Source: Thermogymnomonas acidicola JCM 13583 (GTDB lineage: Archaea > Thermoplasmatota > Thermoplasmata > Thermoplasmatales > Thermoplasmataceae). From it: a stretch of DNA of 64,000 nt. Where the stretch lies: the NCBI RefSeq assembly GCF_001316105.1, contig NZ_BBCP01000004.1:1-64000 (forward strand), in the 5' to 3' direction. The notes under the pieces were generated by a model. The model saw only the letters and a program-made list of their open reading frames with translations, searched no databases and had not been told where the DNA came from. The translations under genes and the position numbers were made by a program. Positions 1 through 12,877 of the stretch are shown here, piece by piece (within the stretch, counting starts at the first letter, position 1; each line of letters starts with the position of its first letter).

Positions 1-3000
1 GAAAGTATTCAGGTATTTCGATTTCTACATATGCATAACTACGTAAAATAGAACCTAAGTAGGATTGAAAGATTGCATCCCAATCCGGTTCTATCTTTCA
101 ATCTTGTGTAAAATAGAACCTAAGTAGGATTGAAAGTCTATAACGAGGACGAGGTACTTAACGAGGCGCTTGTAAAATAGAACCTAAGTAGGATTGAAAG
201 ACCGTCACGCTCCAAGCGACCGCCGGTGCGCCTGGTAAAATAGAACCTAAGTAGGATTGAAAGTTTGCCATACCATTTCAGACCGGCCCCTGCTAGGGCC
301 AGGTAAAATAGAACCTAAGTAGGATTGAAAGGAGAAGGGCCTTTCCGATCTCTTTCTCATCGAGGGCCTGTAAAATAGAACCTAAGTAGGATTGAAAGTG
401 CACGCCTGCACCCATGGATAAAAAGGTTTTCATTTGTAAAATAGAACCTAAGTAGGATTGAAAGTTCTACTGATACTCTCTGCAAGTTCAAAAAGTGTAG
501 TAAAATAGAACCTAAGTAGGATTGAAAGGAATTTTATGCACGAATTGTAATTATGTGGTAGGCAGTAAAATAGAACCTAAGTAGGATTGAAAGAAAACAA
601 TGAGGAATTACAGATCGATAGAGAGAAAAGTAAAATAGAACCTAAGTAGGATTGAAAGAAAAGATAGGAAGGCATTTTCATAATGGTGATAAAAAGTAAA
701 ATAGAACCTAAGTAGGATTGAAAGTGGGAAGCCGATACGAGAGGGGGGCAATTTGCATCAGATGTAAAATAGAACCTAAGTAGGATTGAAAGGTACACTA
801 CTCATCAAACTCACCTTCTAGGTCTACGTGTAAAATAGAACCTAAGTAGGATTCAAAGAAGAATTCCTAGGGAGCGGGCCTTCTCTATTATGGAGGGGGG
901 GTAAAATAGAACCTAAGTAGGATTGAAAGATCCTCCTTAGCCTCCTCGATCTCCTGTTTGATGTCGTAAAATAGAACCTAAGTAGATTGAAAGACCATTA
1001 TGACCACTTATTTTTATTGTGACGGGTCGAGTAAAATAGAACCTAAGTAGGATTGAAAGAAGGAAAAAGAGGGGGGGTTGGGCCCGATCAATGGAGAGTA
1101 AAATAGAACCTAAGTAGGATTGAAAGGACGAAGATTGAGCCCCCCCATTTCCAGAAATGCTTGAGAGTAAAATAGAACCTAAGTAGGATTGAAAGTGACT
1201 GTGTCAGCTTGACAACCAGATGGTCAGTTGCAGGTAAAATAGAACCTAAGTAGGATTGAAAGAGAAGCGATCTGACCCTATTGTCTCCCTTTCTCCATGT
1301 AAAATAGAACCTAAGTAGGATTGAAAGCCATTTTTATTTATATCTTTTGTCGCACACAGACGCGTAAAATAGAACCTAAGTAGGATTGAAAGGAGGCCGT
1401 GCCAGAAATCTTGCGAGTCCTGTTCGAATAGGTAAAATAGAACCTAAGTAGGATTGAAAGGGAACAATCGGCGCTCTCGATAATCGCTTTAATTTCTGGT
1501 AAAATAGAACCTAAGTAGGATTGAAAGATGGTCGCGTACACTGTCCCGCTGGCCCTGAGGCGAAGTAAAATAGAACCTAAGTAGGATTGAAAGAAATTCG
1601 TCTTCGGCTTCGTCAATGCAACCGGATCGAGGTAAAATAGAACCTAAGTAGGATTGAAAGATCGATAAGAATGGCCATAAGATGAGAACCACGATGTAAA
1701 ATAGAACCTAAGTAGGATTGAAAGGCTCGGCGAAGAAAAAATTTCGTCGTCCTCCCTCGAGTAAAATAGAACCTAAGTAGGATTGAAAGTTCTATCGAGT
1801 CAGTCGAGAGAATATCGAGAGGATGCAGTAAAATAGAACCTAAGTAGGATTGAAAGCCAAATGTCCTCCGAATCGACGGAAACGAGGGGGGGGTAAAATA
1901 GAACCTAAGTAGGATTGAAAGCTACGTCCAATCTTATGGACTTTGCCAATCCTATAGTGTAAAATAGAACCTAAGTAGGATTGAAAGATATTCGGGCTCT
2001 ATTCCCTCGATGTAGGCCAGCATCGTAAAATAGAACCTAAGTAGGATTGAAAGGAGGCCGTGCCAGAAATCTTGCGAGTCCTGTTCGAATAGGTAAAATA
2101 GAACCTAAGTAGGATTGAAAGGGCTATTGATCGACCGGTTTTTTTCCTGTACAAATCGGTAAAATAGAACCTAAGTAGGATTGAAAGAAATAGTGGGGGG
2201 TCTCAATTTTTATCGGATAGTTTGAGTAAAATAGAACCTAAGTAGGATTGAAAGCCAACTATTCGATCCTCGTCGTTCCAGGTCAGTTTGGGTAAAATAG
2301 AACCTAAGTAGGATTGAAAGAATGGTGCATGCTATTCCAACTGCCTGGGCGCAGGGGGTAAAATAGAACCTAAGTAGGATTGAAAGGTGACGGTCGATAT
2401 CTTATCCAGATTGAAAATCATGTAAAATAGAACCTAAGTAGGATTGAAAGTGAGAAAATAATGTTAGCCCGCTCCATTGGATCGCAGTGGTAAAATAGAA
2501 CCTAAGTAGGATTGAAAGATCCTATGGCCTCAATGACTTCCTCGACGACCTCCTCGTAAAATAGAACCTAAGTAGGATTGAAAGTTTGCCATACCATTTC
2601 AGGGCTGCGCCCCCGAGGGCTGGTAAAATAGAACCTAAGTAGGATTGAAAGCCATCTAATCCCGGATCTCCTAGAGGCCGGGGGGGGTCTGTAAAATAGA
2701 ACCTAAGTAGGATTGAAAGCCCTTTTTCATCCCAGCCATGGGCATGTAGCAATTTTGGGTAAAATAGAACCTAAGTAGGATTGAAAGCGAAATTCGTATT
2801 GGTGGTACGAAATTCGGAAAAAAGGGTAAAATAGAACCTAAGTAGGATTGAAAGTAACATAATATTGAGACAACCCCCCCAGCCAATCAAATTGTAAAAT
2901 AGAACCTAAGTAGGATTGAAAGGCTTTATCACACTTTTTGATGCAGGTGCAATCATGAGTAAAATAGAACCTAAGTAGGATTGAAAGTAGAATTTCATGC

Positions 3001-3906
3001 CTCTGCCTCCGCTTCGTATTCTATGTAAAATAGAACCTAAGTAGGATTGAAAGTCTTATTCAGAGGAAAATGAGCCGCAATATGCAGGTAAAATAGAACC
3101 TAAGTAGGATTGAAAGTTCCATACTGCATGCAGAAGGATTGCAAGTGCAATAGTAAAATAGAACCTAAGTAGGATTGAAAGTTGGGGGGGATGCCTCCCG
3201 GACAGCCGTACTGATCGCAGGGTAAAATAGAACCTAAGTAGGATTGAAAGTTCTCAAAGAATCAAAAGAGAGATTCTGGAAGATAAAGGTAAAATAGAAC
3301 CTAAGTAGGATTGAAAGAAAAGTATCCGAAACTCCTTCATGCCCATGGCTGGGATGGTAAAATAGAACCTAAGTAGGATTGAAAGGTTTCGTTCTGGGTT
3401 CTGGACTGGTCGGTAAGAAACGTAAAATAGAACCTAAGTAGGATTGAAAGATTTATACTGATACTGATAGCTTTTTGTTGTTAACAAAGTAAAATAGAAC
3501 CTAAGTAGGATTGAAAGAGAAGGAGAAGTGGAAAGCTAAGATCCGGGGGCCGATGTAAAATAGAACCTAAGTAGGATTGAAAGAATATGAACTTTAGGAC
3601 CTCTTCCCACACAGGTGCAAGTAAAATAGAACCTAAGTAGGATTGAAAGAAAAAAAATGGAAAAGAAGACGGCACACGACCAGATAGTAAAATAGAACCT
3701 AAGTAGGATTGAAAGCCGGATGACACGGGCGGTAAGATCCTTATTGAGATAGTAAAATAGAACCTAAGTAGGATTGAAAGGCAATAGGACATGTTCATTA
3801 TTTGTCCATCGAATGAAGTAAAATAGAACCTAAGTAGGATTGAAAGCGCATTCATGCTCCAGTCTAGGAGTATGCTTGTTGGGCAGGAAAATAGAACTTG
3901 AAAAAG
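1..3906 (+). CRISPR. CRISPR array 1 (type I-D associated), cut by the left window edge
   Basis: Fifty-eight complete copies of a 29-bp direct repeat that begins GTAAAATAGAACC and ends GGATTGAAAG. The first is at 43-71 and the last at 3818-3846, with the tail of another repeat at 1-5. I count 59 spacers of 34-42 bp, most of them 35-39 bp. A decayed copy at 3886-3906 keeps both repeat ends but has lost the middle, which marks the leader-distal end. The ATTGAAAG 3' end is typical of crRNA 5' handles, so transcription should run rightwards from a leader outside the window. Variant repeats occur at 830 (ATTCAAAG end) and 966 (one G missing). The cas operon converges on this end from the right. One spacer is present twice and two spacer pairs share target sequence. 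Confidence 0.98.
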
Positions 3907-4014: not shown

Positions 4015-4278
4015 TCATATCACGTTCTCATGTCTAACTCTGCTCTCGCCGATAGTTATCCTGCGCACCGTTTTCCTGCTCCTCAGGATAAATATATCGA
4101 GAACCTCGCTCTCTCTATCAATCTCACCCTTCAGTTTATCCAGCAGTATTCTCAGGTTTCCCAAAGTTATATCACCCATGAAAACAGAGTTCTGAATGTG
4201 TAAAAGGTAAGGTTTGCAGATCTTGGATATCCTCGCATCCTTTGAGGCATTGACATCATAGACAAGGACAACGAACAT
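4015..4278 (-). CDS. cas2: CRISPR-associated endoribonuclease Cas2
   Basis: An 87-residue protein beginning MFVVLVYDV, the Cas2 first beta strand with its conserved Asp, followed by the small ferredoxin-like fold typical of the family (usually 85-100 residues). Cas2 joins Cas1 in the spacer integration complex. It is the last gene of the leftward cas operon. GAGGAG precedes the ATG, and the cas1 stop lies 2 bp upstream, so the two are probably translationally coupled. The reading frame is intact. The ORF on the opposite strand here is a shadow. Confidence 0.93.
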   Translation of the reverse strand: MFVVLVYDVNASKDARISKICKPYLLHIQNSVFMGDITLGNLRILLDKLKGEIDRESEVLDIFILRSRKTVRRITIGESRVRHENVI

Positions 4279-4280
4279 GC

Positions 4281-5250
4281 CTATCTCCTCGCAACGTAAG
4301 GTTTGTATGGTTCACCCTCAAGGATGTACCTCTCCAGCTTGTACAGCTCGAGCCTGATGATGTGCTTGTTCGAAACGTACCTCGCTAGCGATTTTGAATA
4401 TACTGTCTTTTCCATCTCTTCACTGAACCTGCTGAGCACCATCCGCCTCCCGCTTCGTTCAGAAACACTCCGCCGTTGGACACAAAGTGCTTGTCTGGCT
4501 TGAGCTCCTTCCTCCTTATCATTGACACTATTACAGAGTGGCCAAGTATGGGCTTGAATATTTCAGCCACATCTAGGGCCAGGCTGGTCCTGGATGTGGA
4601 CGGCTCGTGTAAGAAGCTGACTGTAGGGTCAAGGTGTGTGCAGAATATTTCAGAGGAAACCGTGGAATAGATCAGGGAGTTCACGAAACTTATGAGCGCG
4701 TTTCCGAAGGACATCGGTGGCCGCCTGCTCCTGGTTCCGATCCTGAACTCTTCTGGCAGCACTGTGTCCAGGGAATCAAAGTAAGAATCCGCTATGTTTC
4801 CCTCGATCCCCATCAGTCCCGGGATATCGGTGGCTGACAGGACATCACGGAAGCTCACCCTGATCCTGGGTGCCCCCCCGTGACGCCTCAGGTTCACGTT
4901 GTAGTTCCTGGCTGCACCTATAACGAAGGCCCTGGCGAGGTGCATCCTCGATCCCGGGTCCAGGAACCTAGAGAACTGCATGATCCGCACCTTACCGCTT
5001 ATCAGGTAGTTCTCTGGCAGGATGCTCGATATGTACCTGCCTGAAGAAGTCATGAGGAACACAGGTATCCCTGCCCTGGATAGGAGCTGGATTGCCGGCT
5101 TCGTTAGGGTTGCGTTGCCTGTGATCACCAGCGAATCAACATCGTTGAGCGGTATCTCGGATTCACCGTCCCTGCTCTTCAGTACAAGGCTCTCGTCTTT
5201 CCTTGAAATGATGCCGTTGGAATTTATGTAGTATGGCCTCAGTCCCTCAC
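4281..5250 (-). CDS. cas1: CRISPR integrase Cas1 (frame broken twice)
   Basis: Metal-dependent integrase that inserts spacers together with Cas2. The uninterrupted core (5128 down to about 4450) carries IEGNIADSYF with the metal-binding Glu, SFLHEPS with the His and LALDVAEIFKP with the Asp. Restoring one G in a GGG run near 4449 opens the normal C-terminus (RRMVLSRFSEEMEK onward) and gives a stop at 4281. At the N-terminus the expected strand RPYYINSNGIISRK is in frame, but no start codon is. Restoring one G near 5243 gives a GTG start at 5250 that overlaps the cas4 stop as GTGA. Reconstructed length is about 323 residues, normal for Cas1. The start is inferred. Confidence 0.9.
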
Positions 5251-5783
5251 CTCCCTCCCCCCCAGCAGAACTCTACGTAGCTGCAACCCCCCCTCCTGCA
5301 GAACCAGTTCCTCTTCGCCTGGGGTATTTCAGAGACAGTCATACTCTCGATCTTCCGGTACGCTTCCTGAAGTTCCTGAAGGTGTTCAGGCAGGGCTATC
5401 TCCACCACCTTCCTTGAGCCAGTGAGGTGAAGTATTCCCCTGGCCTCCACGCCGTAACCTGAAAGGAGGCAGTTGAGGTAGTGGGCAAGCTGGAGCACGT
5501 CTGCTTTGAGGGCCTTCCTGCCCCCCCTCTTGTACTCATGCACCAGGGCGGTGCCATCGGGCAGGATCTCAAGGTTGTCGATGACGTTGGAGCCCACTTT
5601 CACCCTCGAGAATCCTGGGTGTTCCCTGTTCTCTGCCAGGTACTTCCCTTCCATTACGAACTCCGTGCCATCCGTGATGTATATGTTGTGTACCGATAGC
5701 CAGAGGCGCCTGTCGCAGATCTGTGAATAGCTCACGTCTGTGCCCCCCCTTATCTCCTCTGGCCTCAACCTCTCAACTCCCAA
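5247..5783 (-). CDS. cas4: CRISPR-associated exonuclease Cas4
   Basis: A 178-residue RecB-like nuclease with an iron-sulphur cluster that trims prespacers and helps select the PAM. Cys23 (in SYSQICDRRLW) and Cys162, Cys167 and Cys173 near the C-terminus are the four cluster ligands. Between them come the nuclease motif VHEYKRGG and the QLAHY motif. Gene order cas4-cas1-cas2 is that of the adaptation module. The start appears to be TTG at 5783, inside the end of cas3d, so translation is coupled. A G7 run after residue 11 adds what looks like a surplus Gly but keeps frame. Confidence 0.9.
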   Translation of the reverse strand: MGVERLRPEEIRGGTDVSYSQICDRRLWLSVHNIYITDGTEFVMEGKYLAENREHPGFSRVKVGSNVIDNLEILPDGTALVHEYKRGGRKALKADVLQLAHYLNCLLSGYGVEARGILHLTGSRKVVEIALPEHLQELQEAYRKIESMTVSEIPQAKRNWFCRRGGCSYVEFCWGGGR

Positions 5784-7598
5784 GCTGCACCCGATAACTC
5801 AGCCTCTCTGGATACCCGGTGACGTTCACTATGGCCTTCACGAGATCTTTTGCCTGTGTGGGCAGCCCGCCGCATGCGTTGAGGAACCTGAACGCTCTCT
5901 CCAGGCTGTCCAGCATTTCCCGCCTCTCCTTTCCGTATATCTCCTGGAAGGTCATGCTCACCTCCCTGGTAGACACATCCGTGTATGGGAGTCCTGTTAT
6001 CCTCACGTCGAAGCCCCGGTCCGGCTTATCCTTAAGGCCGGTTACCACAATGCCATGCTCAGTCTTCAGGTAATCCGCGTTCTGCATGAGCCAGAGGGCA
6101 TCATACCTGTACTGTTCGCTGGCCCCATCTCTACTGTCGCCCATCATGAAGTTGATCTCCTCCCTGTCTCCTATGAAGTACCTGAATGTGTCCATGTAAT
6201 CGGAGAACCAGCTGCAGAAGCAGGAGAGCTCCTCGCACTCCTCCACCTCCGCCTTCTTCCTCATCTCGTTGATCTTTGCCACTGCAGCCAAGGACCTCCT
6301 GACTCCGGTCCCGAACCTGCTGTCACTGGCAGAGACGGACTCCTCCACAAGCGTGTCCCTGGCGTCCCTCGTGAAGAACTGCAGCAGCACACCAGCGTAT
6401 ATCCCCCCCACGATCTCTGGCTTCAGGCTTGTTCCTTCCTCTCCGATCTCCTGTGATAGCCTCTCGACAACGTTCATCCCGTCCGCTATCTTGCCCATGG
6501 CCCTGTCAATGATGGCCTGGTCTCCCATTGCTATTATCAGGCGGCTCCTCTCCCTGATGCCCCCCCTCCCCGACCCTGCCCGCCCTCTGCCTCAGGTTGT
6601 GGCCGTAGTATCCCCCCCGGGAAATGATGAAGTTCATGAAGTCCCGCGGCGGGTTGTGGCCCTGCTCAACTATGTTTGAAGCAATGACTATCCTCTTGCT
6701 GAAGCAATTTCCGAGGGCAGCCTCCCTGTCACTCCACCTTGATAGGTCCATTCGGTTGAGCAGGCAGATATCTCCGGGTGAAATCCCCCCCTCTCAACCA
6801 TCATGTCCCTTGCCTGGATGCAATCCCTGATGCTGTCCAGTATCAGGAACCACTTCCCCCCCTCCCTAATGTCGTCCAGGTGCTGTTTGATGGTGTCAAG
6901 GGCCCCCCCCTCAGGGTGGAGATCGTACCCAATGGGGCCACGTATGAAATCACTGCCGGCCTTCTCCACGTTCACTATCTCGATCTCGTCATCGCCCACC
7001 AGTCCCCCCCTGAGAACGCTTACGACCTCTTCCTCAAGCGTTGCGGAGCTGATCAGGAACTTGATCTTCCTGCGTAGGAGTGAGATGAGTGCCAGCAGCC
7101 GGTACTTCTGGTCCCTGCTGTACACGTGGAACTCGTCCAGGACTATGCACCTAAGCCCCTCGATAACGAGGTGTGAAATGTGGTCCGACCGGGACCGGGG
7201 GGGTGGCCTGTAGAAGTTCGTCAGTATGAATAGGAGGAGGGTGGGGGGGTTCGTGAAGACCAGCGTTGAGTTGGAGACCATCTTCGTTATGGTGTATTCC
7301 CTGCCGAGATTCCACTTCACAGCGTTCTCGCGCACTGAAGATGCAGTGATCCTCTCGACGCCTGTCATGCTGGCGCTGAACTCCCTGAAGTTCTGGTCGA
7401 TCAGGACGTTGTTCGGCATCACTATGAAACTCCTGTAAACGTCACTGTAGAGCCTTGAGAAGGCCCTGGTCTTGCCCGCCCCTGTGGGGGGGCCTGCAGC
7501 ACGAGTATGTTTTTCTTTGAATCCAGGAAACCAGCCACTATTTCTTGGAAGGAACGGTCAACGTATTCCTCTCCCGATTCTATCAGCTGGCATGCCAT
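5773..7598 (-). CDS. cas3d: Type I-D helicase Cas3d (no HD domain; frame broken)
   Basis: Superfamily 2 helicase that unwinds target DNA after Cascade binding. In order it carries a P-loop (APTGAGKT once a 7-base run near 7485 is read as five), a DEFH box (VLDEFHVYS), an SAT-type motif (LISSATLE) and motif VI (QRAGRVGR). About 250 residues of C-terminal domain follow. Further breaks lie at C/G runs near 6787 and 6565. No HD nuclease domain precedes the helicase, as expected for type I-D, where the HD belongs to Cas10d. The start MACQLIES at 7598 overlaps the end of csc1. Reconstructed length is about 608 residues. Confidence 0.88.
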
Positions 7599-8278
7599 GA
7601 CACGCCCTCTGAGTAGAGGTCCCTGAACTCCTCCACGGTCACCGGGCCAACGACGAAGTACTGGATCACGGCGTGCTCCGAGTAGCTGAACTCCCTCCCC
7701 TTCAGCGCTTCGCGCTTCACTGAGAGTATCTTTGTCAGCGTGTAGAGGTTCAGGTAGCACCTCATTTTCTCCGGTTCTATTTCCTCCACCTTCAGCATGC
7801 CGGTCTTACCCGTGCCCACCCTCAGAACGTTTGGCAGTTCCCAGCGGCCGTCGTCAAGGATCAGGCATAGAAACGGTTGCCGGGCTTCATTGGCTGCTGA
7901 AAGTAGAAGTTCTTGTACATTATGCCACCGACCTTTATCAGGGGGGGGTGCTGGTTTGAGCCGTTGTAGTCGATGCCCTGCATCGTGTTCCTCGTTATCT
8001 GCTTGAAAAACTCCGTGTAACTGCTATCCATTCCAGCAAGGTACCCGGGCACGGCCACGGAGAACCAGAAGCTGTATTCCCTCAGTTCCGAATAGTTCGG
8101 CACGAACTTCCCCGGCTCCGGGGGGGCTTCGCCCACCCCTAGCTGGTGCAGCATGGCGTACTTCAGGGCTATGTCCCCCCCGATAAATGGGGGGGAGGTC
8201 CTGTTGCCCCCTCCCACTTGGCTGGTAGTAGTAGTTAACCGGCTCCAGCACCGTGAGCCTTACACCGCGTACCCTCAT
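7583..8278 (-). CDS. csc1: Type I-D Cascade subunit Cas5d (Csc1), frame broken
   Basis: Reconstructed 231-residue Cas5-type subunit that caps the crRNA 5' handle. It starts MRVRGVRLTVLEPVNYYY, a ferredoxin-like first strand, followed by IGDIALKYAM, a pattern I associate with Csc1. Breaks lie at the C and G runs around 8178-8225 and at a short C run near 7855. The ATG at 8278 overlaps the csc2 stop (ATGA), and its own stop overlaps the cas3d start, so the cascade genes are tightly coupled. Assignment rests on position between csc2 and cas3d plus the N-terminal motif. Homology-model confirmation was not possible here. Confidence 0.78.
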
Positions 8279-9225
8279 TGTGACCTCCAGAATTCTGCCC
8301 AGTCCTGCTCCATCTTGGATATCATCTGCTCCGCCACAGTCCTGAGCTCGTCCCTGTTTGCTGCCAGATGCCTTGCGTCCGAAATCAGATTCTCCAGGCC
8401 CTCTCCCGTAAGGAGGCTGTCACCGTAGGCTGCCTGCATCTGCTCGATGATGGTCTTCTCAGGGTTCCAGGAGCCGCTCTCCCAGCACTCTTCCATTACG
8501 GAGTAAGAGGTCACCCCCCCCTGTCGCCTTTCGAGAATCCCACCGCGACAACGGTGTTCTGCATGTTGTCCCCCCCGAGTATCGATGTCCTTGCGCCGTA
8601 CCTTGTGGTCTTCAGGGTGGTTGCGATGACCACCTTCAGCATGTCCAGCGATGCGTTTTCGAGCGATATAAAGCGCACGAACTTCACGCCAGGCTTCACG
8701 TACTGTGTGTTGTATATTGCGTTCCTCTGCACGTTGCCTGCTCATCCATCAGGATGGTGCCTGTATCCGAAAGGGAGTTGTGGGTCAGCCTCTCGGTGAT
8801 GGCACCCATGGGCTCGTAGCTGTAGGACCAGTCATAGTAGCACCTGGACGCTATAGATGCTGCCTCCCTCCCGCTACCTGTGCTGGAGTCTCCATATATC
8901 AGGCTCACCGTTCTTGAGCAGCGATTTTGCGCTCACCGCATTCCTGTGGTAGTTCTCCGGCACTGCGCCAGCCCACCTGAACAGTGTGAGGGCTGTGCCA
9001 CGCTCCGCGCCCCCTCCACTTGGGACCAGGAACGACTACCCTGTCGTACCCGAAGAACATTTCCGATGTGGTCTCAGTCGGTTCATTGTTCCTGCATATA
9101 AAGAATGACTTGGTCTCCGAGACCACAGCCACCTTCATGAACAGCCCACTGTTCCTCCTCAGATCCAGATCGCCCACTGATTTCTTCAGCAGGCCTGCCT
9201 CAACAGCTTCTGACACACTCTTCAT
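8275..9225 (-). CDS. csc2: Type I-D Cascade backbone Cas7d (Csc2), frame broken
   Basis: Reconstructed protein of about 316 residues, the likely crRNA-binding backbone subunit. The pieces read MKSVSEAVEAGLLKK, then VVSETKSFFICRNNEPT, a central GDSSTGSGREAAS loop, YVKPGVKFVRFISLENAS and a C-terminal helix ending EQDWAEFWRSQ. Breaks occur near 9005, 8735 and at a C7 run near 8517. The start is ATG 9225, preceded by GGAGGT in the short gap after cas10d. The stop overlaps the csc1 ATG. Length and position match Csc2. A divergent Cas7 of another I subtype is less likely given Cas10d upstream. Confidence 0.78.
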
Positions 9226-9241
9226 TTTTACTCAACCTCCC

Positions 9242-12162
9242 TCATTCTCCCATCACGTACTCAAACTCGAACGCATCGATCAGGTAGGACTTCATGTTAC
9301 CGGTCGGTGGGCGACCGTGGAAGTCCTTTTCTATCATCTCCAGGAACGTCCTGGAGAACTCCCTTATCTTCTCGCTGTCCAACCGAACATAGTGCTTCGA
9401 GTCCGGCTTGTCCCTCTCAGCCTGGAGGCCTTTGTAGAGGTGACCCTCCACGAACTCCAGGTAGTTCCCTAGATCCACTTTTTCCTTTGCTCCCACCACA
9501 GTTTCTGAAAGAGCCTTCTCTAGCACGTCAAGACTCTCCCTCAGCATCCAGGACCTCTGAGAGCCACTCATGTCGAATCTTGGCGGCCAGAGCTCCCTTG
9601 CTATCCTCGCAAGTTTCTTCACGCTTTCCACACTCACACCTCCTTTCACTCCACCAAAGCCCCCCCTCTCCGCATACAGTTCCACCTTGGCCTTCAGGTG
9701 GGGCGGGAACCTGAACCTTCTGGAAGACGAACCCCCCCTGCCCGACTCGCCCCCCCTGTTCTCCTGGCTCCTGACGGCGTCCATGCAGTACGAGAAGAGG
9801 CTGATTGGTTCCCTGATGAACTCCCTCAGTATCTCTGCCTCCTGGTCGTACCTGTTCTTCGATGAGCTCCTTGATATGTTGGCCAGGAACCCGATGTCCT
9901 CAAGGAAAGCCAGCACCTCCTGCAGCTTGTTGTACCTTACCCTGGAGATGCCAAGTTCATCCAGGACAAAGTTGTTCACTGCGTAGTTGAAGATCTCCCT
10001 CTGCTGGAGGGCCGGTGGAGAGTGAGAATCTATTACCTGCACCCTCAGCTTGGTGCCTGAAGCCAGTCTTATGGCTTCCTCGTACAGCCTTAGGGCATCC
10101 GATGTCGTCTCAGGCTGGTCCACAGCCAAGAAGTATGAGGTGTCCTGCCGGAGGGGCCCTTTCCTCCTGCGAAGCGAGACCACTATTTCATCTATCCTCT
10201 CTGCCGCCCAGTTCTCCGCCTTCTGGTTGCTGGCCAGGTAGTTGAGGATCCTGTAGAGGTCGAAGAAGGGTATTGGGCCCGGGAAATCGAAGAACACAAA
10301 GACCGACCCTTCTCTGGATTCGCCCAGCCCGAGCTTTTTCCTTAGGAAAGATTCGAGCACATACCTCCCGTCAACAAGGGAGTTCTGGATGGCGGAGGTG
10401 ACGACCCTGTTCGTGAATATCGCGTTTGTCCTCAGCCCGTACAGGTTTTCCTTTATGGCCTCCGTCTCTCCCGGGTATCCATCTATCATGGACATGTTCC
10501 TCTTGTCGGGCACATCCGGAAGGTCCACAGAGGATGGGCCCAGGATTATTCTGACGATTTTCAGCAGGTTATCCTTGAACCCTGTCTCTGACGTCTCTGA
10601 GGACAGCTCTCTTGAGACCTCTGCTGCAAGGGCGTGCCAGTCTATTCCAGAGGCCTGTACAGCTAGGTCGTCGGGAATGCCGATCTCGGCTGCAACCGCC
10701 TTCCCGTCTAGGCCGGACAGGGCAACTACCAGCGGGATTAGAAGCGGATTTTTCCTCTTGTTAACCTCTTTTGTTTCCCTCAGGAGGGCATTGATGACAG
10801 CGTTTCCGCCTTCCAAGCTGCAGAGAGAGTCAAGCAGTTCCTTGACTTTCTCGAACTCCCCCTCCCTGACCTGGGAGCCTATGAGCTGAACTATTCGTAT
10901 AAGTATTACTTTTTTCATCTTCTCCGTGTCGGATATTAGGTCACTCACACCTTCAGTCAGGTTCCTGTAGCTCAGCGGCTTGGAGCCACGGGGAGTGAGG
11001 CTAACCTCCAGGTCTCCCTTGAACTCACGGTTCACTACGTCCCGGTACCTGGCAAGCGCTTCCATGGCATCCTGCGGCACAGGCTTATCCTCAGGCCTGA
11101 GGGCCTGTTTCAGCTTTTCAGGCTTGCCAGCGACCTCCCGCAGAACCTCCTCAGTGATGTAGACCATCTGCTTTCCAGGGATGTTGATCCTCCTATCTGT
11201 GAACTCTATGCTGTCCGCGATCTCCATCATCTGGCCAGAGATGTACTCAGCTAGGCTCTCCGCCACCTTTTCTGGCTCGATGCTTATCCTCGACCTGGCA
11301 ATGTAGTATATGGCATCCGGAGTGCTCCAGAGGTAGTGGCCACCAGAGGAACTTATGATCTCCACTACTGTGTTTCTCAGGAGTCTGTCACAGCGACAAA
11401 GTACGTTGAGCCCAGCGGCGTCTTGAATACAGAGTAATCTGTGAAGAGGTTCACCTCCAGGAACTTTAGGCTCCTGAACCACTGGTCGGATGCTATATTC
11501 AGGGGGGGCTCGGCAAATTTGCTGGATATCTTGTCGGCAAGCGATGAGAAACCAGACTCAAAGGTAAGCATAGGATTGACCTGCACCCTGGAACTCAGGG
11601 CATTGAATTTCGTGTCCTCCTCCGTTGAGAATGCGATCTGATAGATGTCGTCCGTCGACATCGACACCTCGCTGAGTGTATCATGGAAGTACATGTTCAC
11701 AAGGTCGGAGAGGCTGTCCCTAGAATCCTTCATCCTGTAATCGTCACCCGTGAGCTTGACGTAGTCATGGAATAGGTAGCCGAGGAGTGCCCTCTTCAGC
11801 CTGAACGACAGCTGAAGGCGCCAGTCCCCCCCTGCCATCGGCGCTTGGATCCGTGGGCCCTCTCTCAACCCTATTCTTGATCCTCTCAATGAGGTCTGGG
11901 TTCATTGCAGGGTTGCTGAGAAAGGTGTCGAGTATCTTCAGGGCACACTGCTCCCGAGAGGATGTGGCCTATGTACGGGAGGTCGTACTTCCTCTCCCAT
12001 GATGCCCGTGAAGGGTCTTCCCATTCGCCACCCTTCGCCGTTTGGTTCCAATCCTCTTCGTTCCATATGCGCGCCACCACCTTCTCCACGAACACTGGTA
12101 CGCACTCTGGACCGACGGTTCCCTGTACTGTTTGGGATCTGCCTTACATTCGTCTCTTCCAT
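9242..12162 (-). CDS. cas10d: Type I-D large subunit Cas10d (Csc3) with HD nuclease domain, frame broken
   Basis: Signature protein of type I-D, combining a Cas10-like large subunit with the HD nuclease that other type I systems place in Cas3. The reconstructed protein is about 970 residues. It starts MEETNVRQIPNS at 12162, where the cas6 TGA is directly followed by ATG. An N-terminal all-helical part contains YIGHILSG and the HD signature GYLFHDYVKL (around 11770). A long C-terminal region runs uninterrupted from about 11390 to 9242. Frame breaks lie near 12110, 11952 (one G missing), 11827 (C7 run) and about 11390. I see no intact GGDD palm motif in the long C-terminal part, as expected for Cas10d. 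Confidence 0.85.
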
Positions 12163-12877
12163 TCAGCTCACCTCCCAGCACCCCAGACCCAGGCCTGTCT
12201 TCGATCCCAGGCCCCCGGTAGTAGAGGAGCAATATGTCCGATGGGTTTCCCGTTATCTTTCCGGCGAGGTTAAAGCATGTCGTTATTGAGTTTTTTCCTG
12301 CGTTCGAAGAGATCCTTGCAGTCTTCCTGTGCGATTTGAAGATCTCGATCTTCACCCGGGGGGGCTCCTGCACGCCCAGCTTGTTCTTCAGAAACCATTC
12401 AGTTGTGAGGTTCAGGTTCTCCTCGATCCTATCGGGGGGGTCAACAACATATTTCCTGCCATCACTGAAGTCCCTGATCAGAACGGGCGAGAGGGTCCTG
12501 AACTCGAGTTCTCCCTGCATCTCATTCTGCTCTACCTCCTTCACTGACTTCACTGTAAAGCTTGTATCCGCGATCTTGAGTACCGGGTTAAGGGCCAGCC
12601 CAAGCTTAAGGTACTCCAGCAACCTGTCGTCCAGAGTCCTGAAGACAAGGAACCCCCCCCTGTCTATCTTCAGGCCGTTGATGCCGGTCGAAACATCCCT
12701 GGATATTATGTTGCTGAAGGTGAAAACCGAGAAGCTAGAAGGCACATGCAGGGGGGGCCTTACCTTCTGCTGGTAGATACCGAGCCTAGAATAGAGGGAC
12801 ATTGCAAGGTAGTAGTTGTACTCGTACGGGATCATCTTGCCTGAGGTGCGCTCCATGGTGATCAATGCTGTTTTCAT
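12163..12877 (-). CDS. cas6: CRISPR RNA endonuclease Cas6
   Basis: Processes pre-crRNA within the repeat to leave the 8-nt 5' handle. It begins MKTALITMERTSGKMIPYEY, typical of Cas6 (beta strand, then helix NYYLAMSLYSRL). Removing one C near 12205 restores the C-terminal glycine-rich loop GLGSKTGLGLG and a stop at 12163 immediately before the cas10d ATG. Without the correction the frame runs on into cas10d. Reconstructed length is about 237 residues, normal for Cas6. It is the first gene of the operon and is divergent from the CARF regulator. Confidence 0.87.

What the first reader, a model, noticed from the sequence alone, without database searches (positions are those of the whole stretch)
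264..2622. Two spacers share the first 18 bases (seed) but diverge afterwards
Spacers 264-302 and 2585-2622 both begin TTTGCCATACCATTTCAG and then differ. Read on the minus strand, both encode LKWYGK, so the target is probably a conserved protein motif in two related viruses. The identical seed lies at the PAM-proximal end, where type I interference is most stringent. This suggests re-adaptation against an escape lineage at the same PAM, or two viral relatives sampled at one site.
Basis: partly seen in the sequence, partly recalled or inferred. Interest (0 to 1): 0.62.

Follow-up and report, generated by a model that had tools for sequence, protein, structure and literature searches.

The report
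Twin CRISPR spacers from related viruses
Two entries in an archaeon's CRISPR memory were captured at the same position of the same gene from two related but clearly different mobile elements (probably viruses), and several other entries in this and neighbouring species' arrays show the same ordinary pattern.

Summary
In detail: spacers 264-302 and 2585-2622 share their first 18 nt, far above chance. 'Diverge afterwards' is too strong. Read on the minus strand, ALAGAGLKWYGK and ALGGAALKWYGK match at 10 of 12 residues, and the base changes sit mainly at third codon positions. The pair are therefore homologous protospacers from two related elements, taken with the same start. The locus is a type I-D system, and a conserved leader fixes the array polarity, so the shared end is PAM-proximal and 264-302 is the younger spacer. 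It is not unique: s14/t39, s41/s50, s2/t52/t45, and pairs in or between relatives' arrays show the same thing. One recurrent target reads as DNA polymerase B motif C (IYTDTDSF). Overlapping spacers reveal their neighbours' flanks: GTA, GTT, GTA, i.e. the known type I-D PAM GTN. No protospacer was found in any searched collection, so the element and gene remain unidentified. 'Escape and re-adaptation' is not supported: the differences look like ordinary divergence, not seed or PAM escape. A good but ordinary example of a known phenomenon.

The parts
43..3846 (+). CRISPR array, 58 repeats GTAAAATAGAACCTAAGTAGGATTGAAAG, spacers 34-42 nt; the contig begins inside the array; degenerate last repeat at about 3885-3905 marks the trailer end
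   Evidence: leader end with tRNA-Asp and 60 more repeats on contig C22
264..302 (+). Spacer s4; minus strand LALAGAGLKWYGK; the leader-proximal (younger) member of the pair
2585..2622 (+). Spacer s39; minus strand ALGGAALKWYGK; the older member of the pair
930..965 (+). Spacer s14; homologous to spacer t39 of contig C22 with the same start, 34/36 nt identical, differences synonymous; minus strand DIKQEIEEAKED
2720..2758 (+). Spacer s41; minus strand PKLLHAHGWDEKG; homologous to s50 taken from the other strand
3318..3356 (+). Spacer s50; plus strand KYPKLLHAHGWD; 30-nt overlap with s41, 4 differences, all synonymous
137..171 (+). Spacer s2; overlaps t52 (contig C22) by 15 nt with 1 synonymous difference; s2 shows GTA just upstream of the t52 start; tiles YNEDEVLNEALYYWGA[I/V] with t52 and t45
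3451..3488 (+). Spacer s52; plus strand IYTDTDSFLLLT, reads as family B DNA polymerase motif C (YxDTDS); a spacer in relative G062 (L046_29, IYTDTDSFFVVN) starts at the same codon
   Evidence: motif assignment from knowledge of PolB
4015..4281 (-). cas2
   Evidence: ORF; PADLOC Cas2b E 8e-23
4281..5272 (-). cas1 (frameshifted near 4450)
   Evidence: cas1_HMARI E 7e-66
5247..5783 (-). cas4
6688..7422 (-). cas3' helicase, type I-D-like (partial)
   Evidence: PADLOC Cas3 CAS-I-D E 3e-9
7861..8259 (-). csc1 / cas5d (partial)
   Evidence: TIGR03159 E 2e-8
8511..9231 (-). csc2 / cas7d, split over frames by apparent sequence errors
   Evidence: PADLOC Cas7d E 5e-11 on one fragment
9242..11889 (-). 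cas10d, in two frames
   Evidence: PADLOC Cas10_Id E 5e-39 and 6e-15
11969..12877 (-). cas6
   Evidence: TIGR01877 E 2e-19

Best explanation
The two spacers are separate acquisitions, by a type I-D adaptation machinery, of the same PAM-defined site in a conserved gene carried by two related but diverged mobile elements, most likely viruses. The site is read on the minus strand as AL[A/G]GA[G/A]LKWYGK. Adaptation requires a GTN PAM, so the cut-out start is fixed to the same base whenever the PAM codon and its neighbours are conserved. The end nearest the PAM happens to cover the best conserved residues, and the spacers differ farther in at synonymous and small-residue positions. The older one is s39; s4 came 35 spacers later, when a relative was met. 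Shown: homology, reading frame, same start, type I-D, polarity. Inferred: that the targets are viral, that both sites carry GTN, and the two-encounter history.
For: Shared 18-nt prefix far above chance. The homology continues at protein level, 10/12 aa, with nucleotide changes 0/2/5 at codon positions 1/2/3. The same pattern occurs in independent pairs: s14/t39 (same start, 2 synonymous changes), s41/s50 (opposite strands, 4 changes, all synonymous), s2/t52/t45. In relatives: L049_2/L049_46 (same start, 10/12 aa) and L046_29 against s52 (same start, PolB motif C; a third PolB spacer, L047_19, starts one codon later). Type I-D effector genes are present. The leader is conserved in front of the array of relative G062, also with tRNA-Asp upstream. 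Three of three clean overlaps show GTN just upstream of the neighbouring spacer, matching the published type I-D PAM (PMC10212523, PMC9123187).
Against: No protospacer, gene or element was found in IMG/VR, INPHARED phages, PLSDB plasmids, GTDB genome contigs or up to 150 relatives. The viral origin and the PAM at this particular site are therefore inferred. Two spacers are a small sample for codon-position statistics, and the reading frame was chosen as the best of six. Two of the three PAM readings come from the array of a relative (G034), not this genome.
Confidence: 0.85

Rival explanations
1. Re-adaptation after escape: a virus targeted by s39 mutated, and the host re-acquired a spacer (s4) from the escape lineage at the same PAM, perhaps by priming from the partly matching older spacer.
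For: s4 is leader-proximal (younger) and shares the seed with s39, so the s39 crRNA could still engage the s4 target with 9 PAM-distal mismatches.
Against: Escape is expected in the PAM or seed, which are the shared parts. Differences are third-codon biased and multiple, as in long divergence. The s14/t39 and s41/s50 differences are all synonymous. Priming normally yields other sites near the primed one, not the same site (own knowledge), and has no data in type I-D (PMC10212523).
Confidence: 0.06
2. Both spacers come from one element that carries two paralogous copies of the gene (or a repeated domain).
For: Spacers alone cannot tell paralogues in one genome from orthologues in two.
Against: Several unrelated target sites in the array come in diverged pairs, which is simpler with two related elements than with duplication of every gene.
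Confidence: 0.06
3. Array-internal event: s39 or s4 is a chimaera or decayed duplicate made by recombination between repeats, mutation in the array, or mis-assembly.
For: The array does contain an exact duplicate (s21 = s31) and a partly repeated block (s20/t54, s22/t56), and the assembly has systematic errors.
Against: No other spacer shares the second half of either spacer. The changes follow codon structure, and flanking repeats are unchanged. Neither spacer holds a G/C run of 7-8.
Confidence: 0.02
4. Chance similarity of two unrelated targets.
For: A chance GLKWYGK-like string was found opposite a PRC-barrel gene of relative G060, showing that short motif matches occur.
Against: 18 identical bases at the same start: longest prefix in 500 simulated sets is 10-11.
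Confidence: 0.01

Closest known systems
Type I-D CRISPR-Cas adaptation with a GTN PAM (Synechocystis; PMC10212523, PMC9123187)
   Same: Cas10d, Csc1, Csc2, Cas3', Cas6, Cas4-Cas1-Cas2; 5'-GTN inferred from overlapping spacers; spacer start fixed by the PAM
   Different: Host is probably a Thermoplasmatales-like archaeon (inferred, no name given); cas genes broken by apparent sequencing errors; PAM inferred, not tested
Tiling and overlapping spacers against related archaeal viruses in Sulfolobales CRISPRomes (PMC6858448)
   Same: Several spacers overlap on the same viral region; closely related viruses targeted side by side
   Different: There the viruses are known; here the targets are unknown and homology is read from the spacers themselves
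Virus evolution against Sulfolobus islandicus spacers (PMC6452263)
   Same: Diverged protospacers of one virus family targeted by spacers of different age
   Different: Escape there is enriched in the PAM-proximal bases; here the PAM-proximal half is the conserved half

Membership tests
Type I-D CRISPR-Cas | Cas10d large subunit | tested here: met
   PADLOC Cas10_Id E 5e-39
Type I-D CRISPR-Cas | Csc1 (Cas5d) and Csc2 (Cas7d) | tested here: met
   Csc1 TIGR03159 E 2e-8, below its curated cut-off, the ORF being partial; Cas7d E 5e-11 on a fragment
Type I-D CRISPR-Cas | Separate Cas3' helicase | tested here: met
   PADLOC Cas3 CAS-I-D E 3e-9 on a partial ORF
Type I-D CRISPR-Cas | GTN PAM | tested here: inconclusive
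   3 of 3 clean spacer overlaps give GTN, one of them in this genome; no real protospacer available
Homologous protospacers in related elements | Homology along the spacer with codon-structured changes | tested here: met
   10/12 aa, changes 0/2/5 by codon position
Homologous protospacers in related elements | Protospacers located in homologous genes of two elements | tested here: inconclusive
   No protospacer found
Escape-driven re-adaptation | Changes concentrated in the PAM or seed | tested here: not met
   First 18 nt identical; mismatches at positions 19-38 only

The most novel reading that the evidence does not exclude
An older, partly matching type I-D spacer steers new acquisition to the very same PAM of a returning, diverged relative, so that conserved catalytic or structural motifs are re-recorded again and again (same-site refreshing of immunity), a form of priming not described for type I-D.
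Probability: 0.06. Interest if true: 0.6.

Novelty: new member of a known kind. Interest (0 to 1): 0.3.

Why it matters
It shows that an array with no known target still records the evolution of its enemies: pairs of diverged spacers reveal conserved coding motifs, reading frames, one recognisable gene (DNA polymerase B) and the PAM, without a single protospacer. That could guide discovery of the unknown viruses of these archaea. The biology itself is expected.

Tried and rejected
Exact 18-mer and degenerate back-translations in IMG/VR and GTDB contigs: one hit, L022, rejected because HAHGWD lies there in a frame overlapping another gene of a tailed phage, without further similarity. Composite peptide query of the four motifs in IMG/VR, GTDB, phages, plasmids and 150 relatives: nothing convincing. 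The G060 match GGTCTTAAATGGTATGGCAAG was rejected: antisense to a PRC-barrel-like gene beside a CDC48-like ATPase (gene names by eye). Plus-strand reading of the pair (FAIPFQ...) rejected: a stop in s4 and poorer agreement. PHROG 17441 (E 0.04) spans the artificial joint of my composite query and is not evidence. Array recombination, decay and chance were rejected as argued above.

Full report
What is there. The window begins inside a CRISPR array: 58 repeats of 29 nt and spacers of 34-42 nt up to position 3846. A second contig of the same assembly, C22 (4529 bp, L021), holds 60 more repeats preceded by about 570 nt with a tRNA-Asp gene. The roughly 110 nt just before the first repeat, and the tRNA, are conserved in front of the array of relative G062 (82% over 137 nt including the repeat, and 97%). 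This is the leader, so the window holds the old (trailer) half of what is probably one array, and spacers nearer position 1 are younger. That C22 and C4 join is inferred.

The two spacers. s4 (264-302) and s39 (2585-2622) are identical over 18 nt from the repeat, a string found nowhere else in the assembly. Simulated spacer sets never share a prefix of more than 11 nt. The halves beyond are still alike: 29 of 38 aligned bases in all, without gaps. In the frame of LKWYGK the peptides are ALAGAGLKWYGK and ALGGAALKWYGK; the seven base changes in that frame fall 0, 2 and 5 on codon positions 1, 2 and 3. This is what two homologous genes look like after divergence under selection on the protein.

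Not unique. An all-against-all comparison of the 116 distinct spacers finds further such sets: s14 and t39, same start, 34/36 nt, both changes synonymous, DIKQEIEEAKED; s41 and s50, taken from opposite strands, 30 nt overlap, four changes all synonymous, PKLLHAHGWD; s2, t52 and t45, which tile YNEDEVLNEALYYWGA[IV]DRMNEKSKK. The scores of the first three pairs (56-63) compare with at most 37 in shuffled sets. Arrays of relatives with nearly the same repeat do the same: L049_2 and L049_46 (AIGASEAGG[LV]I, same start) with L049_30 overlapping, and L046_29 starting at the same codon as s52, IYTDTDSF, with L047_19 (YCDTDSIH) one codon later. YxDTDS is motif C of family B DNA polymerases (own knowledge), so at least one target gene is recognisable and fits a virus or a related selfish element.

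The PAM without protospacers. Where one spacer starts inside another, the second shows the flank of the first. The three clean cases give GTA (t52 in s2), GTT and GTA (L049_3 and L049_6 in each other). The chance of GT in all three is about 1 in 4000 (own arithmetic, equal bases). The published type I-D PAM is 5'-GTN (PMC10212523, PMC9123187), and the cas genes beside the array are type I-D (Cas10d, Csc1, Csc2, Cas3', Cas6, Cas4, Cas1, Cas2). t45 against t52 would read TTG, but the G-run error and the I/V difference make that case unreliable. Detection favours same-start pairs because they overlap fully, so their frequency should not be over-read.

Mechanism. Most likely the adaptation machinery cuts at a GTN whose position is fixed by conserved codons, so related elements yield spacers with the same first base (inferred). 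Escape and re-adaptation would predict changes at the PAM or in the first 7-10 bases; the opposite is seen. Whether the old spacer influenced the later capture cannot be told from sequence, and priming in type I-D has no data.

Limits. No protospacer was found in any collection searched. The collection scans were exact matches to degenerate patterns, so diverged relatives could be missed, and metagenomes could not be scanned. The gene carrying LKWYGK is unknown, and 'virus' is an inference.

Data quality. G and C runs of 7 and 8 are in great excess and runs of 4 and 5 depleted (window: C7 93 against 3 expected, C4 64 against 197). The tRNA-Asp acceptor arm reads CCGGGGGGGC where G062 has CCGGGGC. 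I read this as a +3 error in the assembly. Seven window spacers carry such a run, s4 and s39 do not. I shortened these runs by three before comparing spacers. Several cas genes are also frameshifted.

Verdict.

Noticed in passing
whole window, e.g. 895, 1071, 5257; contig C22 tRNA-Asp (L021 4411-4486): Apparent systematic +3 error in G/C homopolymers (4 read as 7, 5 as 8), genome-wide (about 8200 match positions); seen directly at a tRNA acceptor stem by comparison with G062.
   Followed up: yes
1393-1431 and 2054-2092: Exact duplicate spacer s21 = s31 within the array.
   Followed up: no
1328-1363 and 1461-1498 against C22 spacers t54 and t56: Two spacers at the same spacing occur in both contigs with a different middle spacer (s21 against t55), suggesting a partial block duplication or strain variation.
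   Followed up: partly
3451-3488: Spacer s52 reads as DNA polymerase B motif C; spacers in two relatives (L046_29, L047_19) hit the same motif.
   Followed up: partly
L049 (G034 contig C291): Spacers L049_2, L049_30 and L049_46 all hit a GASEAGG[LV]I motif, a target family of its own in another genus.
   Followed up: partly
4281-9231: cas1 and csc2 are split over frames, probably by further single-base assembly errors, which may explain the 50% completeness.
   Followed up: partly
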